From positions 248,001 through 312,000 of the forward strand of contig JANQJK010000016.1 in NCBI GenBank assembly GCA_028281665.1: DNA of 64,000 bases, written 5' to 3'. Below, piece by piece: positions 4,356 to 39,759 of the stretch. The notes beneath the pieces are model-generated. The model did not search any database, had not been told where the DNA came from, and worked only from the letters and a program-made list of their open reading frames with translations. The DNA is from Hyphococcus sp. GTDB taxonomy: Bacteria > Pseudomonadota > Alphaproteobacteria > Caulobacterales > Parvularculaceae. The stretch's first letter is position 1, and every line of letters begins with the position of its first letter. A program made the position numbers and the translations under genes.

Positions 4356-7238
4356 TCAGGAGGCTGACCGATGCCACCAGCCGCGTCGCGCAGGCTTTTG
4401 CGGCGCGGTCGGACCGTCTTCCGGGTTGGATTCGCCGGCGGAAGCGTCCGGTTGTACGTCGTCTTCCTTTTCGTGCGCGCCTGCGTCGTCGCCGTTTTGT
4501 TGTGCGCCGTTGGAGCCGGCAGAAGGCATTGCATCATCCGGTGCGGCGTCTGGCTGTGTTTCTTCCGCAGCGGTGGGTGCCGGGCCGGCGTTGTCCGCTG
4601 CATCGCCGGCGGCGTTTGCTTCGTCTTGCTCCGTCGCAGGATCGGCACTCTTTTCTGCGTCGTCTCCGGCCGCGTCCGCATTGTCGCCCTCGGCAGACTC
4701 GGACGCCTCTGCGCTCGTCGTCTCCTTGCGGTTGCGGCGCCCGCCGCGGCGCCCGCGGCGCCGACGTTTTTTCGGCTTGTCTTCGGACTCTTCGTCACTT
4801 GACGGAGCGTCCGCCGACTGCGTCTCCGATGCGGCGTCGTCGCCGTCGCCGGCGGTTTCGCGCTGATCGCCGTCGTCCCGGTCGCGCCGCGGGCGCCGTC
4901 GCCGGCGTCGCTTTTTCGGCTTCTCTTCAGAGTCAGCGCTTTGCTCCGCTCCGGCGTCGTCGTCTGTGACGTCCGCATCATCCATGTCGAGCGGCTCGGT
5001 CTGATCGGCCCGGACGACGGGCTGGTCCTTTCGCCGTTCCCGCGGCGCGCCGCTCGTCTCCAGTTCGTAGTCGTCCCCGTGCTTGTCGGAATCGGCGATG
5101 ATCTCGACGCTGACGCCGTTGGCCTGCTCAATCCGGTTTATCCAGTCCCGATGATGATTGAGCACGTGGAGGGATACGTCGATCGAACTGCGCACGGCGA
5201 TTGTCCCCACCTTGCCGGCAATCGCTTCCCCTTCGATGGCGCGCAGAATTCGGAGCGCCGCCATGTTGTGCGAGCGAATAACGCCGGCGCCGGAGCACGT
5301 CGGACAGGTTTGAGTCGTGCCGTCGACGATGCCTGAACGCCGCCGTTGCCGAGACAATTCCAGAAGTCCGAACGGCGAAATACGTCCGATCTGAACGCGC
5401 GCGCGGTCGGCCTTCATCGCGTCTTTGAGGGCGCGCTCAACCTTGCGGTTATTGCGCGGCTCTTCCATGTCGATGAAATCGATGACGATGAGACCTGCAA
5501 GGTCGCGCAGGCGGAATTGGCGCGCCGCTTCTTCGGCGGCCTCGATATTTGTCTTCAGCGCCGTCTGCTCGATATTGCGTTCGCGCGTGGCCCGGCCCGA
5601 GTTGACGTCGATTGCAACAAGCGCCTCGGTCTGGTGGATCACGATGTAACCGCCGGACTTTAAGCGAACCGACGGTTGATACATGCCGTCAAGTTGCGTT
5701 TCGACGCCGTGCTTCAAAAATATCGGCGCGCGTTCCTTGTAAGGCTGCACGTTTTTGGCGTGGCTCGGCATCAGCATTTTCATGAAGTCTTTCGCTTCAC
5801 GATAGCCTTCCTCGCCCTCCACATAGACCTTGGAGATATCCTTGTCGTAAAGGTCGCGAATGGCGCGCTTGATGAGGCTCGCCTCCTCGTAAATTAGGCA
5901 GGGCGCGATCGACTTTAACGTCAGGGAACGGATGTTTTCCCAAAGACGCAGCAGATAATCGTAGTCGCGCTTAATCTCGGTCTTCGTGCGTTTTGCGCCG
6001 GCAGTGCGGATGATCAGCCCCATGCCGCGCGGCACCTCAAGGCTGTCGACGACGCGGCGCAATCGGCGCCGGTCTGAGCCGTTGGCGATCTTGCGGGAAA
6101 TGCCGCCGCCCCGCGCCGTGTTCGGCATCAGGACGCAGTAGCGGCCGGCGAGCGAAAGATAGGTGGTCAGCGCTGCGCCTTTGTTGCCGCGTTCTTCTTT
6201 GACGACCTGGATCAACAGGATCTGGCGGCGCTTGATGACTTCCTGAATTTTGTAGTTGCGGAGCAGGTTTGCGCGTTTGCGCTTGGCGTTTTTGTAGCGC
6301 TCGAAAAGCGCGTTGCGCGCGGCGCGCGCGCTCTTGGCCGCGTCGTTCTTGCTGTCGCGGACTGTTTCCTCGTCCCCATCATCACTTTCATCGTCATCGG
6401 CGGAAACATCGTCGCCCGCGGCGTCGTCACTTGCTTCGGCCTGGTCCGCCGCGGCTTCAGCATCGTCATGGTCGTTTTCCGCATCGGTTTCGTCTGACGC
6501 CGCGTCTTCGGCTGCGTCCTCAGATGTCGCTTCCGGCTGCGCGTCGGCTTTCAGCGACGGCTCTTCGCCGTCTTCGTCGATTTCATCGCCGACGTCCGGT
6601 TGTGGTTCGGACCGTTCGCCCGCCGCTTCGTCATCGTCTGACGCCTTCGTCTTTTTGTCTTCTTCCTCTTCTTCTTCCGTTTCGCGGCGCTCTATTCGCT
6701 GGTCGTCGGGGGAGGCCGCCTCGTCATCGGTCTCGCTGTCGGACTGGGCGCGGACATTGTCCTCATCGTCGGCGTCATTGTCGCTGTCTTCCGAGGCTTC
6801 ATCGTCGCCGACGTCGGAAAGGGCTTCGGCGAAGCTTTCGTCCTGTTCGTCCTCACCCTCATCGTCGGAGCCTGCGGCGGAGGGCCCGGCGTCCTCATCG
6901 TCTTCGTCGTCGCCGCGCTGCGACAGTTCCAGTTCGGCGGCGAGCTCAGCGACTTCCTGCTCCGCTTCCTGCAGAAGATTACGGTCGGAAACCGGTATCT
7001 GGTAATAGTCGGGGTGGATCTCGCTGAACGCCAGAAAGCCGTGGCGATTGCCGCCGTAGTCGACGAAGGCGGCTTGCAGAGATGGTTCGACGCGGGTGAC
7101 CCGCGCCAGAAAGATGTTACCGCGTAATGGCTTGCGCGCCGCGGATTCGAAGTCGAAGTCTTCGATTTTGTTCTGGGATACGACCGCCACGCGCACCTCT
7201 TCCGGGTGGGCGGCGTCGATTAACATTTTTTTGGACAT
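4356..7238 (-). CDS. rne: Ribonuclease E
   Basis: MSKKMLIDAAHPEEVRVAVV start, S1 split by a long acidic insert, DFIDMEEPRNNRKVERAL, Zn-link CPTCSGAG, acidic/Arg-rich C-terminal tail. Confidence 0.95.
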   Translation of the reverse strand: MSKKMLIDAAHPEEVRVAVVSQNKIEDFDFESAARKPLRGNIFLARVTRVEPSLQAAFVDYGGNRHGFLAFSEIHPDYYQIPVSDRNLLQEAEQEVAELAAELELSQRGDDEDDEDAGPSAAGSDDEGEDEQDESFAEALSDVGDDEASEDSDNDADDEDNVRAQSDSETDDEAASPDDQRIERRETEEEEEEDKKTKASDDDEAAGERSEPQPDVGDEIDEDGEEPSLKADAQPEATSEDAAEDAASDETDAENDHDDAEAAADQAEASDDAAGDDVSADDDESDDGDEETVRDSKNDAAKSARAARNALFERYKNAKRKRANLLRNYKIQEVIKRRQILLIQVVKEERGNKGAALTTYLSLAGRYCVLMPNTARGGGISRKIANGSDRRRLRRVVDSLEVPRGMGLIIRTAGAKRTKTEIKRDYDYLLRLWENIRSLTLKSIAPCLIYEEASLIKRAIRDLYDKDISKVYVEGEEGYREAKDFMKMLMPSHAKNVQPYKERAPIFLKHGVETQLDGMYQPSVRLKSGGYIVIHQTEALVAIDVNSGRATRERNIEQTALKTNIEAAEEAARQFRLRDLAGLIVIDFIDMEEPRNNRKVERALKDAMKADRARVQIGRISPFGLLELSRQRRRSGIVDGTTQTCPTCSGAGVIRSHNMAALRILRAIEGEAIAGKVGTIAVRSSIDVSLHVLNHHRDWINRIEQANGVSVEIIADSDKHGDDYELETSGAPRERRKDQPVVRADQTEPLDMDDADVTDDDAGAEQSADSEEKPKKRRRRRRPRRDRDDGDQRETAGDGDDAASETQSADAPSSDEESEDKPKKRRRRGRRGGRRNRKETTSAEASESAEGDNADAAGDDAEKSADPATEQDEANAAGDAADNAGPAPTAAEETQPDAAPDDAMPSAGSNGAQQNGDDAGAHEKEDDVQPDASAGESNPEDGPTAPQKPARRGWWHRSAS

Positions 7239-36588: not shown

Positions 36589-38136
36589 ATGGCGGAATCC
36601 GAGATCCTGACGCCGGCGCTGATCGGCGATCTGGTGGAAGAGCAGGCGGCGCGTGCGCCTGAAAAAATCGGACTGGTCTTTGAGGGACGTGAATTCACCT
36701 ATGCGGAGATGAACGAGCGCGCCAACAAAGCGGCGGCGGCGCTACGGCATCTGGGGGTCAGCCGGGGGGACCGGGTCGCCTGGCTCGCACGCAACGTTGC
36801 TGTGTTCTGGGACGCCTTGTTCGGCGCGGCGAAAATCGGCGCCGTGATGACGCCGATCAACTGGCGCCTTGCGCCGGCGGAGATCGCGCAGATCCTTGAA
36901 GATTCCAAGGCGACGATTTTTGTCGGCGAGAAGGATTTCATCGATCCGTTAAACGCCATCGGCGCCGCGACGCCGGAGACGACGTTGACGCTCGAAACCG
37001 GCGCGGGATCATTCGATGCGCTGGTCGACGAACAGAACGCGGTGGCGCCGGCGCATAAGCCGTCGCTCGATGACGCGTTTATTCAACTCTACACCAGCGG
37101 CACGACGGGTCTGCCGAAAGGCGTCGTCCTCTCCAACCGCGCCTACAAAATGAATGGCGAACTCGGCGCCGAGCAACGAATACTGGCGCCGAAGAGCGCC
37201 GATGAAGTGGCGCTCCACGCGCTGCCGCATTTTCACGTCGCCGGCGTCAATTTCGGGCTGATGGCGATGGCGCGGTCTATGCCGATCCTGCAATTGCGTC
37301 AGTTCGATCCCGTGGGAATCGTCGAGGCCGCGAAAGGCGCCGCGCCGCTCAATTCGTTTCTCGTGCCCGCGATGATCATGATGATCCTCGAAGCGGCGAA
37401 ACAGATGCAAACGCCCCTCGGCAAATTCGCCAATGTTTCTTACGGCGCCGCGCCGATGCCGGAGGCGTTGCTCGATGCGGCGATGGCGGCGATGCCCAAC
37501 GCGACCTTCACGCAGTTTTACGGGGCGACCGAGAATTGCGGCGCGGTGACGTTCCTCGCCCATGGCGACCACGCCAGGGGCAAGAAACAGCGCGTCGCCG
37601 CAGGCAGGCCGTGGCCGGGTACCGAAGTTAAAGTCTGCGATCCGGAAAGCGGCGATACGGTCGGCGCCGGCGAAACGGGCGAAGTCTGGATGCGCTCCGG
37701 CGCTGTCATGGACGGCTATTGGGGCCGTGACGACGCTACGGCGGAAGCGCTCGTCGACGGCTGGTACCGCACCGGCGACGCCGGGTATTTCGACGAAAAC
37801 GGCTTTTTGTATGTGTGCGATCGCGTCAAGGACATGATCATTTCCGGCGGCGAAAATATTTACCCGGCGGAAATCGAAAATGCGCTCGCCCAGCACCCCG
37901 CCGTTTTGGAGGCAGCGATTATCGGCGTGCCTGACGAGAAATGGGGCGAGATCGTCAAGGCGTTCATCGTCAAGCGCGCAGGGACGGAACTGTCCGAGGA
38001 CGATGTCATTGCGCATCTCGCCGATCGTATCGCCAAATTCAAACTGCCGCGGGAGGTTTCGTTTATCGGCGCCCTTCCGCGCAATCCGTCAGGCAAGATC
38101 TTGAAAACCGAGTTGCGCAAGGGGCAGGGCGAATAA
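36589..38136 (+). CDS. AMP-binding acyl-CoA synthetase
   Basis: [76 protein letters not shown]. Confidence 0.93.
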
Positions 38137-38137
38137 G

Positions 38138-38665
38138 TCACGCCGTTCCGTCCATGACGGATTGAACCGTATCGTATCCGGATGATTTCAGGGCCGCGTG
38201 CGCAGCATCGCGATATCGGCAGGCGTTGCGGATGTCGCTTTCATATGGATGCGTGAGCAGCCGCCCAACGTAATCGTCGACCAGCTTGTGCTCGCGCGCG
38301 CCGGCGATCATGAGCGCGAGATACCAGTCATAGGGTGCAAGGCCCGCTTTCGGCGTTTGTGCAATATACGTCATGGCGCGCCGCGGCGCCGCACCGTCGT
38401 CAATCTCAAAATCGTCAATGCGGTCGTATCCGGTCTCGGCCCGGTCGAGCACGGGCGCCTCGGTCCGGTCGATCTCGTACAAGACCCCCTGAATGGCCGC
38501 GCGTTGCGACGCGACAAGCGTCGCCTTGCCGGATCCGTCAGCGCCGGGTTTGGCGAAGGCAAGCCTGAATCCACGCGCCACCGCAAGGCCGGCCGGGCGT
38601 GCCGAGGGGCATCGCGCGCGAATGCGCGCTGTCAGGAGATTTGACCCATAGGCGAAGTAAAGCAT
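38138..38665 (-). CDS. Gamma-glutamylcyclotransferase (AIG2-like) family protein
   Basis: MLYFAYGSNLLTARIRARCPSARPAGLAVARGFRLAF...GVLYEIDRTEAPVLDRAE. Confidence 0.88.
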   Translation of the reverse strand: MLYFAYGSNLLTARIRARCPSARPAGLAVARGFRLAFAKPGADGSGKATLVASQRAAIQGVLYEIDRTEAPVLDRAETGYDRIDDFEIDDGAAPRRAMTYIAQTPKAGLAPYDWYLALMIAGAREHKLVDDYVGRLLTHPYESDIRNACRYRDAAHAALKSSGYDTVQSVMDGTA

Positions 38666-38780
38666 TGATCCTAAGTCCTGATTTCACGTTTCGCGGATGC
38701 CTTTCGGGCGCCGGCCCGAATTTGCTACAAAAAAGTCATCCGGCGAGGCGGCGAAAGCGTAACCCTTACGTCTCTCCAAC

Positions 38781-38853
38781 GCATTTCCTATTCTCCCCCC
38801 TGGAAATGCTATGGAACCGCCGCCCGGATGTCCTTCCCTCGGGCGGCGGTTTT
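38781..38853 (+). ncRNA. Candidate intergenic small RNA 3' portion: two tandem hairpins plus T-tract terminator (5' end undetermined)
   Basis: GCATTTCC-tattctcccccct-GGAAATGC then CCGCCGCCCG-gatgtccttccct-CGGGCGGCGG-TTTTGGTTT; both stems perfect, both loops 13 nt and C-rich. Confidence 0.45.
38817..38853 (+). terminator. Rho-independent terminator-like hairpin, + strand polarity
   Basis: Perfect 10-bp GC stem CCGCCGCCCG/CGGGCGGCGG followed by TTTTGGTTT; the annotated flanking genes are both on the - strand. Confidence 0.65.
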
Positions 38854-38892
38854 GGTTTCGAAACATGTCCTGTGGCGCCGGGCGCGATGGCG

Positions 38893-39759
38893 CTATTTGT
38901 TCGCGGCGCCGAAGGAGGCGCGCCACGCATCTTCGAACGCATTTTCCGCGGCGTGCGCATGAACGAGCAGGCGAATATCGGAGCGATCGGTCAGCGCACG
39001 GAAGGTGCTTTTTTTCCGGTCCTCGATAAAGCCAAGTTCGTAAAGCCAGTCCGCCGACCGTCCGGTGAACACCCAGGAGCGATGCCACGGCAGCGCTTTC
39101 GGAAAGGCTTCGTTGACGGCCTTGGCCAACTCGTTGGTGCAGTTGGAGTGGAGCGTATTGTAAAATCGCGGCCGCTCTGCGAGTTCGTTCGTGCGGCGGA
39201 CAAAATACTCGAATAAACGGCGCATCTGGTCCGGCTCCAGTCGAAGCTTGTAGGCGTAAAGCGTATGGTCGAGGCCAACGGCGATACGGGTCAGAATATC
39301 GCGCTCCGTTGACCAGACATACATGAGCTCGTAATTGCGCAGCGCGCCGTCAACGGGCGAATACTGCTCGTCCGTTTCCATGCGCGCCTCAATCGATACG
39401 GACATGGTTTTGCGCCGTCCGCTATCGTCCTTGAAGACAAAAGACAGGAAACTGTGCGCGAAGAGGGGATTGTCCGGGAAGGGTTCGATGAAGAACCACA
39501 TTTCCGCGATATCCGCAGCGTTCACTTCAGCGGGCCGCCATCCCGGCGTATTTTCGCCCCCGGCTGTAAATTCGTAATCGCGCAATTGGGGCAGGCGGTA
39601 GCGGCCGGGCGCCGCTTCCTCAAAGGCTGCGACTTTTGAAAAGAGCGGCTTCCAGTTCCGGTCTGACTGCGGCGTTTTCGACAGAACGAGGGCCGCAAAC
39701 ATCAGCCCGAAAAGCATTGCGAACAGAATGACCAGGTTAGTGAAATCACGCGGCGTCAA
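38893..39759 (-). CDS. DUF4105 (Lnb N-terminal periplasmic domain-like) protein
   Basis: AEMWFFIEPFPDNPLFAHSFLSFVFKDDSGRRKTMSVSIEAR...FYNTLHSNCTNELAKAVN. Confidence 0.82.
   Translation of the reverse strand: MTPRDFTNLVILFAMLFGLMFAALVLSKTPQSDRNWKPLFSKVAAFEEAAPGRYRLPQLRDYEFTAGGENTPGWRPAEVNAADIAEMWFFIEPFPDNPLFAHSFLSFVFKDDSGRRKTMSVSIEARMETDEQYSPVDGALRNYELMYVWSTERDILTRIAVGLDHTLYAYKLRLEPDQMRRLFEYFVRRTNELAERPRFYNTLHSNCTNELAKAVNEAFPKALPWHRSWVFTGRSADWLYELGFIEDRKKSTFRALTDRSDIRLLVHAHAAENAFEDAWRASFGAANK

What the first reader, a model, noticed from the sequence alone, without database searches (positions are those of the whole stretch)
38690..38855. Candidate new small RNA with two C-rich anti-SD loops and a terminator
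Between two - strand genes lies a + strand module: GCAUUUCC-[UAUUCUCCCCCCU]-GGAAAUGC (perfect 8-bp stem), then CCGCCGCCCG-[GAUGUCCUUCCCU]-CGGGCGGCGG (perfect 10-bp stem), then UUUUGGUUU. Both loops are exactly 13 nt and rich in C/U, complementary to AGGGGGGA- and AGGGAAGGA-type ribosome binding sites. The layout (C-rich loop hairpins ending in an intrinsic terminator) resembles alphaproteobacterial trans-acting sRNAs such as GsrN and the CUCCUCCC-loop (cuckoo/CcsR) RNAs. I cannot assign the sequence to any family I recognise. No coding gene on + would need this terminator.
Basis: partly seen in the sequence, partly recalled or inferred. Interest (0 to 1): 0.68.

Follow-up and report, generated by a model that had tools for sequence, protein, structure and literature searches.

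The report
Small RNA with two C-rich hairpins
Between two genes of a marine alphaproteobacterium (a Marinicaulis relative) lies what is very probably a small regulatory RNA, built like known alphaproteobacterial RNAs that silence messages with C-rich hairpin loops; it has sibling copies in the same genome and genus and is a new member of a known kind rather than a new kind.

Summary
It is not chance: the fold z-score is -6, 0 of 12 shuffled windows hold such a module, and it is kept at the same place in two other species (G023, G014), where seed sequences persist while stem 2 changes. Rfam gives no hit at gathering thresholds, but sub-threshold full-length matches fall on the C-rich-loop sRNA families: ar14 (39.1 bits, gathering 58.8) and, for the G023 ortholog, CcsR1 (27.2, gathering 65.3). 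The same two-hairpin architecture recurs across the genus (23 of 28 genomes): after a HIT gene, in the 3' UTR of a DM13 gene and, in this genome, after an Hsp20-like gene; stem covariation is clear. Best reading: a stand-alone, lineage-specific sRNA working like NfeR1/CcsR/GsrN by loop pairing to G-rich mRNA leaders. It is not a member of ar14 or CcsR by their defining CCUCCUCCC motif. Anti-Shine-Dalgarno specificity is only compositional in my test. Expression, promoter and targets are unproven; a 3'-UTR or terminator reading remains the main rival.

The parts
38735..38780 (+). Probable 5' part of the RNA (start not located); contains GCGTAACCC (38757-38765) and ACGTCTCTCC (38768-38777)
   Evidence: ar14 covariance model aligns from 38735; GTCATCC, CGTAA and CTCTC blocks shared with G023 and/or G014 orthologs at the same genomic position. 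No convincing promoter found.
38781..38809 (+). Hairpin 1: 8-bp stem, 13-nt loop TATTCTCCCCCCT
   Evidence: sequence, RNAfold, loop TTCTCCCCCC kept in G023; helix covaries across the related set
38791..38800 (+). C-rich seed 1 TTCTCCCCCC
   Evidence: identical in the G023 ortholog; in G014 a TCTCCCCCC run lies just 5' of hairpin 1 instead; UCUCCCCC also in the loop of the DM13-linked sibling of this genome
38817..38849 (+). Hairpin 2 (terminator stem): 10-bp G+C stem, 13-nt loop GATGTCCTTCCCT
   Evidence: sequence, RNAfold; in G014 the stem is GGCCGCCGTT/AACGGCGGCC with the loop motif kept
38832..38840 (+). C/U-rich seed 2 CCTTCCCTC
   Evidence: identical in all three orthologs and in 7 of 10 HIT-linked siblings
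38850..38858 (+). T-rich tail TTTTGGTTT, presumed end of transcription
   Evidence: sequence; T tract kept in orthologs (G014: TTACTTTTTT)
38138..38665 (-). Neighbour: GGACT/AIG2-like protein gene, divergent from the RNA
   Evidence: Pfam PF13772/PF06094
38893..39759 (-). Neighbour: Lnb_N periplasmic-domain protein gene, convergent with the RNA; marks the syntenic position in G023 and G014
   Evidence: Pfam PF13387; synteny

Best explanation
A stand-alone non-coding RNA of about 90-125 nt on the + strand, ending at the intrinsic terminator at about 38858. Its two C/U-rich loops (UUCUCCCCCC and CCUUCCCUC) are the active parts, and the stems present them and end transcription. It most likely acts in trans: a loop pairs with G/purine-rich stretches at or near ribosome binding sites of several mRNAs and lowers (or, as with GsrN and katG, sometimes raises) their expression. 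It is one of several sibling RNAs of the same architecture in this genome (after a HIT gene, in the 3' UTR of a DM13 gene, after an Hsp20-like gene). Shown here: the structure, conservation at the same place in three species, conserved seeds, architecture shared with a covarying genus-wide set. Inferred: transcription, trans-action, targets, direction of regulation.
For: Exact double hairpin, fold z about -6; no such module in shuffles. Orthologs between the same neighbours in G023 (L107:5840-5929) and G014 (L108:5827-5925) although flanking genes differ. Seed 2 is identical in all three while stem 2 in G014 has another sequence. ar14 model, built from other alphaproteobacteria, matches full length at 39.1 bits, E 5.4e-6; the G023 ortholog matches CcsR1 at 27.2 bits. 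Model R1 finds the architecture in 23 of 28 genus genomes; model R2, trained only on DM13 3'-UTR copies, still finds the window copy at 32.3 bits, third-best place in that whole-genome search. Covariation in the DM13-linked set: 11 of 16 pairs with changes on both sides, 0 of 500 shuffles. The HIT-linked sibling has a promoter-like TTGCGN-N17-TANNTT (G014: TAAGTA) upstream in three species, so at least one sibling could be an independent gene. Known RNAs with this architecture act by loop pairing (PMC10746234, PMC3927594, PMC5869019).
Against: No expression data. No credible promoter for the window copy. Only three genomes carry this particular copy. Window and G023 stems are near-identical, so covariation at the locus itself rests on G014. 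R2's score for the window is only 3.4 bits above an ordinary G+C-rich terminator in this genome (C3:171693, 28.9 bits). Loop pairing with translation starts is not better than for permuted loops. In G014 hairpin 1's loop is not C-rich.
Confidence: 0.62

Rival explanations
1. A 3'-UTR element or plain terminator: a stability hairpin plus intrinsic terminator that ends the mRNA of an upstream + strand gene (originally the acyl-CoA synthetase gene) and shields the convergent Lnb_N gene; the C-rich loops are incidental or only stabilise the mRNA.
For: In G014 the ortholog begins about 87 nt after the stop of the co-directional acyl-CoA synthetase gene; class A siblings start soon (tens of nt) after the DM13 stop codon; an ordinary G+C-rich terminator in this genome scores nearly as high with R2.
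Against: In the window a - strand gene lies between that synthetase gene (ends 38136) and the module, and in G023 the neighbour on that side is divergent, yet the module persists. A terminator does not need identical loops: seed 2 is kept while the stem changes. Other terminator-like hairpins in the window rarely have C-rich loops.
Confidence: 0.23
2. A true member of the ar14/CcsR (cuckoo) family that has drifted below the Rfam cut-offs.
For: Full-length sub-threshold matches to RF02344 and, for the G023 ortholog, RF02791; the published family has modular hairpin numbers and variable stems (PMC3927594).
Against: The defining loop motif CCUCCUCCC is absent; scores are well below gathering; no shared promoter signature found.
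Confidence: 0.1
3. An RNA sponge or protein-binding RNA: the C-rich loops capture other RNAs with G-rich loops or an RNA-binding protein, rather than mRNA leaders.
For: Caulobacter CrfA/SisA shows such sRNA-sRNA pairing with a UUUCCUCCCU seed (PMC12559287); the loops show no specificity for translation starts beyond composition.
Against: No partner RNA or protein site identified here.
Confidence: 0.05

Closest known systems
ar14 / NfeR1 (Rfam RF02344), Sinorhizobium and relatives
   Same: Hairpins with C/U-rich loops, the last one the terminator; about 120 nt; loops conserved while stems vary; full-length covariance match at 39.1 bits
   Different: ar14 has three hairpins, each with CCUCCUCCC (PMC10746234); here at most two C-rich loops, with UUCUCCCCCC and CCUUCCCUC; below gathering score; no ar14-like promoter signature near 38,700
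CcsR1-4 / cuckoo RNAs (RF02791; SmelA075/SmelA099 families)
   Same: Two or more C-rich-loop hairpins, several copies per genome, some attached to mRNAs (PMC3927594, PMC10253847); G023 ortholog matches CcsR1 at 27.2 bits
   Different: No CUCCUCCC; neighbours are GGACT and Lnb_N genes, not a DUF1127 gene
GsrN (Caulobacter)
   Same: Exposed C-rich loop as the presumed target-recognition site (PMC5869019)
   Different: GsrN is driven by an EcfG sigma-factor promoter and its C-rich loop is in the 5' part; no EcfG-type site near this locus
SisA-D / alpha-R8 (Caulobacter)
   Same: Sibling sRNAs with a pyrimidine seed (UUUCCUCCCU) and an intrinsic terminator (PMC12559287)
   Different: Their seed is single-stranded downstream of a weak hairpin; here it sits in the loops (in G014 one seed is single-stranded)

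Membership tests
ar14 (RF02344) | Rfam gathering score 58.8 bits | tested here: not met
   39.1 bits, E 5.4e-6, model positions 1-123
ar14 (RF02344) | Three hairpins each with CCUCCUCCC in the loop | tested here: not met
   No exact CUCCUCCC in the locus; nearest is CTCCCCCC at 38793; only two clear C-rich-loop hairpins
ar14 (RF02344) | RpoD-type promoter CTTAGAC-N17-CTATAT with conserved upstream stretch (PMC10746234) | tested here: not met
   A near pattern, CTTGAC-N17-CTATAT with up to 3 mismatches, has no match between 35850 and 40887
ar14 (RF02344) | Hfq-independent silencing of mRNAs at the ribosome binding site | not testable with these tools
   needs experiments
CcsR / cuckoo RNAs | CUCCUCCC motif in the hairpin loops | tested here: not met
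CcsR / cuckoo RNAs | Rfam RF02791 gathering score 65.3 | tested here: not met
   G023 ortholog 27.2 bits; the window copy is not listed at E up to 10
CcsR / cuckoo RNAs | Several copies per genome, modular hairpins, terminator at the end | tested here: met
CcsR / cuckoo RNAs | Association with a DUF1127 gene (often found, not obligatory) | tested here: not met
   The five neighbouring genes tested hit other Pfam families
GsrN | EcfG-type promoter (GGAAC-N17-CGTT) | tested here: not met
   No match with up to 1 mismatch within 6 kb of the locus; only the N17 spacing was tried
GsrN | Exposed C-rich loop | tested here: met

The most novel reading that the evidence does not exclude
Marinicaulis-type bacteria carry their own sibling set of C-rich-loop sRNAs, unrelated by descent to ar14/CcsR, with non-canonical seeds (UCUCCCCC and CCUUCCCUC instead of CCUCCUCCC), made both as free-standing genes and as 3' ends of HIT-, DM13- and Hsp20-linked mRNAs; the window copy would be a free-standing gene in the window and in G023 that sits directly behind an acyl-CoA synthetase gene in G014.
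Probability: 0.35. Interest if true: 0.55.

Novelty: new member of a known kind. Interest (0 to 1): 0.4.

Why it matters
It would extend the C-rich-loop (anti-SD-like) sRNA strategy, known mainly from rhizobia, Rhodobacter and Caulobacter, to a marine lineage for which I found no sRNA paper (a search of the held papers for Parvularcula together with sRNA gave none). It offers a natural series (same architecture, changed stems, slightly changed seeds, gene-linked and free-standing copies) to ask whether loop sequence or only C/U richness defines the targets.

Tried and rejected
(1) BLAST with the core in 60 relatives: only G023 is a real match; the rest are short chance hits. (2) Orthologs behind the acyl-CoA synthetase gene in other genus members: only G014 has one. 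(3) BLAST with the G014 copy finds no others; the pattern CCTTCCCTCNNNCGGC finds further matches, but those I inspected lie in long reading frames and lack the module. (4) Sequence-specific anti-SD targeting: loops favour translation starts over interiors (p 2e-7 and 1.5e-3, 256 crude gene starts) but permuted loops do as well in 32/100 and 29/100 cases; a smaller test on the window alone was negative. (5) A conserved small ORF: reading frames through the RNA differ and carry different stops in the three orthologs. (6) A terminator for the - strand Lnb_N gene: on that strand the stem is followed by TTCCATAG, not a T tract (sequence). (7) Betaproteobacteria-1, CC1840 and similar Rfam hits (E 0.06 and worse) are taken as chance. 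(8) My first hairpin scanner missed the window module because of a G-U limit; fixed.

Full report
WHAT IS THERE. The single-strand fold is -41.1 kcal/mol, z = -5.99. A scan for two neighbouring hairpins with C-rich loops and a T-rich end finds one such module in the window, none on the other strand and none in 12 shuffled windows. The neighbours are a - strand GGACT/AIG2 gene (38138-38665) and a - strand Lnb_N gene (38893-39759); the nearest upstream + strand gene, an acyl-CoA synthetase, ends at 38136. Contigs that hold the closest Lnb_N relatives are named Marinicaulis MAGs, so the window comes from a close relative of those.

RFAM. No family reaches its gathering score anywhere in the window. 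With a permissive search of the locus, ar14 (RF02344) matches over its full length at 38735-38854, 39.1 bits (gathering 58.8), E 5.4e-6. The orthologous RNA of G023 matches CcsR1 (RF02791), 27.2 bits (gathering 65.3), E 0.008. Both are C-rich-loop alphaproteobacterial sRNAs, so the kind is recognisable although membership is not.

CONSERVATION AT THE LOCUS. In G023 (L107) the module lies at 5840-5929 (-), on the far side of the Lnb_N block and next to a divergent nitronate-monooxygenase-like gene (name from the look of the protein; not searched against a family library); in G014 (L108) at 5827-5925 (-), about 87 nt after the stop of the acyl-CoA synthetase gene, again next to the Lnb_N block. 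The orientation against Lnb_N is the same in all three, while the genes around it come and go. Loop 2 keeps CCUUCCCUC in all three; loop 1 keeps UUCUCCCCCC in G023; in G014 the UCUCCCCCC run sits just 5' of hairpin 1, and GCGUAACCC...ACGUCUCUCC upstream is shared with the window. Stem 2 in G014 is GGCCGCCGUU/AACGGCGGCC instead of CCGCCGCCCG/CGGGCGGCGG, so the helix is kept with different letters. In 384 kb of this genome (both strands) the 9-mer CCTTCCCTC occurs once, in this loop; elsewhere in the genome it also occurs by chance inside long reading frames.

A SET OF SIBLINGS. A covariance model (R1) built from 12 candidate members finds matches at E <= 1e-6 in 23 of 28 genomes of the genus. 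Three contexts recur: behind a HIT-domain gene, directly behind the stop of a DM13-domain gene (HIT and DM13 genes are neighbours in several genomes), and this locus; in this genome a further one follows an Hsp20-like gene (C3:88226). Of 26 genus genomes with the HIT gene, most (about 20) have a clear module (R1 at least 33.9 bits) within about 1 kb downstream and one more is weak. In the DM13-linked set (14 sequences, located through the genes, exact ends taken from the model) 11 of 16 pairs show changes on both sides, and 0 of 500 shuffles reach the covariation score; in the mixed set that includes the window, 8 of 15 pairs do. The HIT-linked set keeps CCUUCCC in the terminator loop in 10 of 10 sequences. 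In three species the HIT-linked copy has TTGCGN-N17-TATTTT, -TATCTT or -TAAGTA upstream, which looks like its own promoter. A second model (R2), trained on the DM13-linked copies only, still finds the window copy at 32.3 bits, third-best in that whole-genome search; an ordinary terminator scores 28.9, so R2 alone is not decisive.

HOW IT MOST LIKELY WORKS. ar14/NfeR1, the SmelA075/A099 (cuckoo) RNAs and GsrN use C-rich loops to pair with G-rich sites on mRNAs, mostly at ribosome binding sites (PMC10746234, PMC3927594, PMC5869019). The same is the best guess here. I tested loop pairing on 256 crude gene starts of the same genome: both loops bind the -25 to -4 region better than gene interiors (p = 2e-7 and 1.5e-3), as do a 16S anti-SD and the cuckoo motif, but permuted loops do as well (32/100 and 29/100 permutations). 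So the loops suit purine-rich leaders by composition; nothing here shows sequence-specific targets. Neither loop contains CCUCC.

MAIN RIVAL. The module could be a terminator or 3'-UTR element inherited from an acyl-CoA synthetase mRNA, as its place in G014 suggests, and the DM13-linked siblings sit at mRNA ends too. Against this: in the window and in G023 no co-directional gene immediately precedes it, and the loop is better kept than the stem. A 3'-UTR origin followed by independence would reconcile both; CcsR RNAs are cut out of a protein-coding transcript (PMC10253847).

LIMITS. No expression data. No convincing promoter for the window copy. Only three genomes carry this copy. R1 was trained with the window and G023 copies; independent support comes from the ar14 model, R2 and synteny. 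Covariation counts on related sequences are not probabilities. The cuckoo-family paper itself (PMC4615179) was not held; its content is taken from papers that cite it.

VERDICT. A real, conserved, probably regulatory RNA; a new, lineage-specific member of a known kind. Interest moderate.

Noticed in passing
G000 C10:138372-138467 (L154:1311-1406, -): Sibling double-hairpin RNA between a HIT gene and a DM13 gene, with promoter-like TTGCGC-N17-TATTTT a few tens of nt upstream; similar modules follow the HIT gene in about ten genus genomes.
   Followed up: partly
G000 C10:137696-137783 (L154:635-722, -): Sibling module directly behind the DM13 stop codon (3' UTR), with strong stem covariation in 14 genomes.
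   Followed up: yes
G000 C3:88226-88313 (L180:2227-2314, +): Two C-rich-loop hairpins behind an Hsp20-like gene (GCGCACCCTATGCCCCTCCCGGTTGCGC, then GGGCGCAGCATCCCCCGTGCTGCGCCC and a T run).
   Followed up: partly
L108:5827-5925 (-): In G014 the C-rich run of hairpin 1 has moved from the loop to the single strand just 5' of it; loop 1 is now GAATTGTATAAG-like.
   Followed up: partly
L050/L097 (G041), L052 (G057), L051 (G037): In another family of the order, RNAs with long CCCCUCCCCUCCCCCC-type loops in two hairpins followed by a terminator, closer in look to ar14.
   Followed up: no
window 38599-39216 (+): A long open + frame (205 codons) runs through the RNA region and across the Lnb_N 3' end; the frames through the RNA itself are not conserved in the orthologs, so it is probably a G+C-rich accident.
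   Followed up: partly
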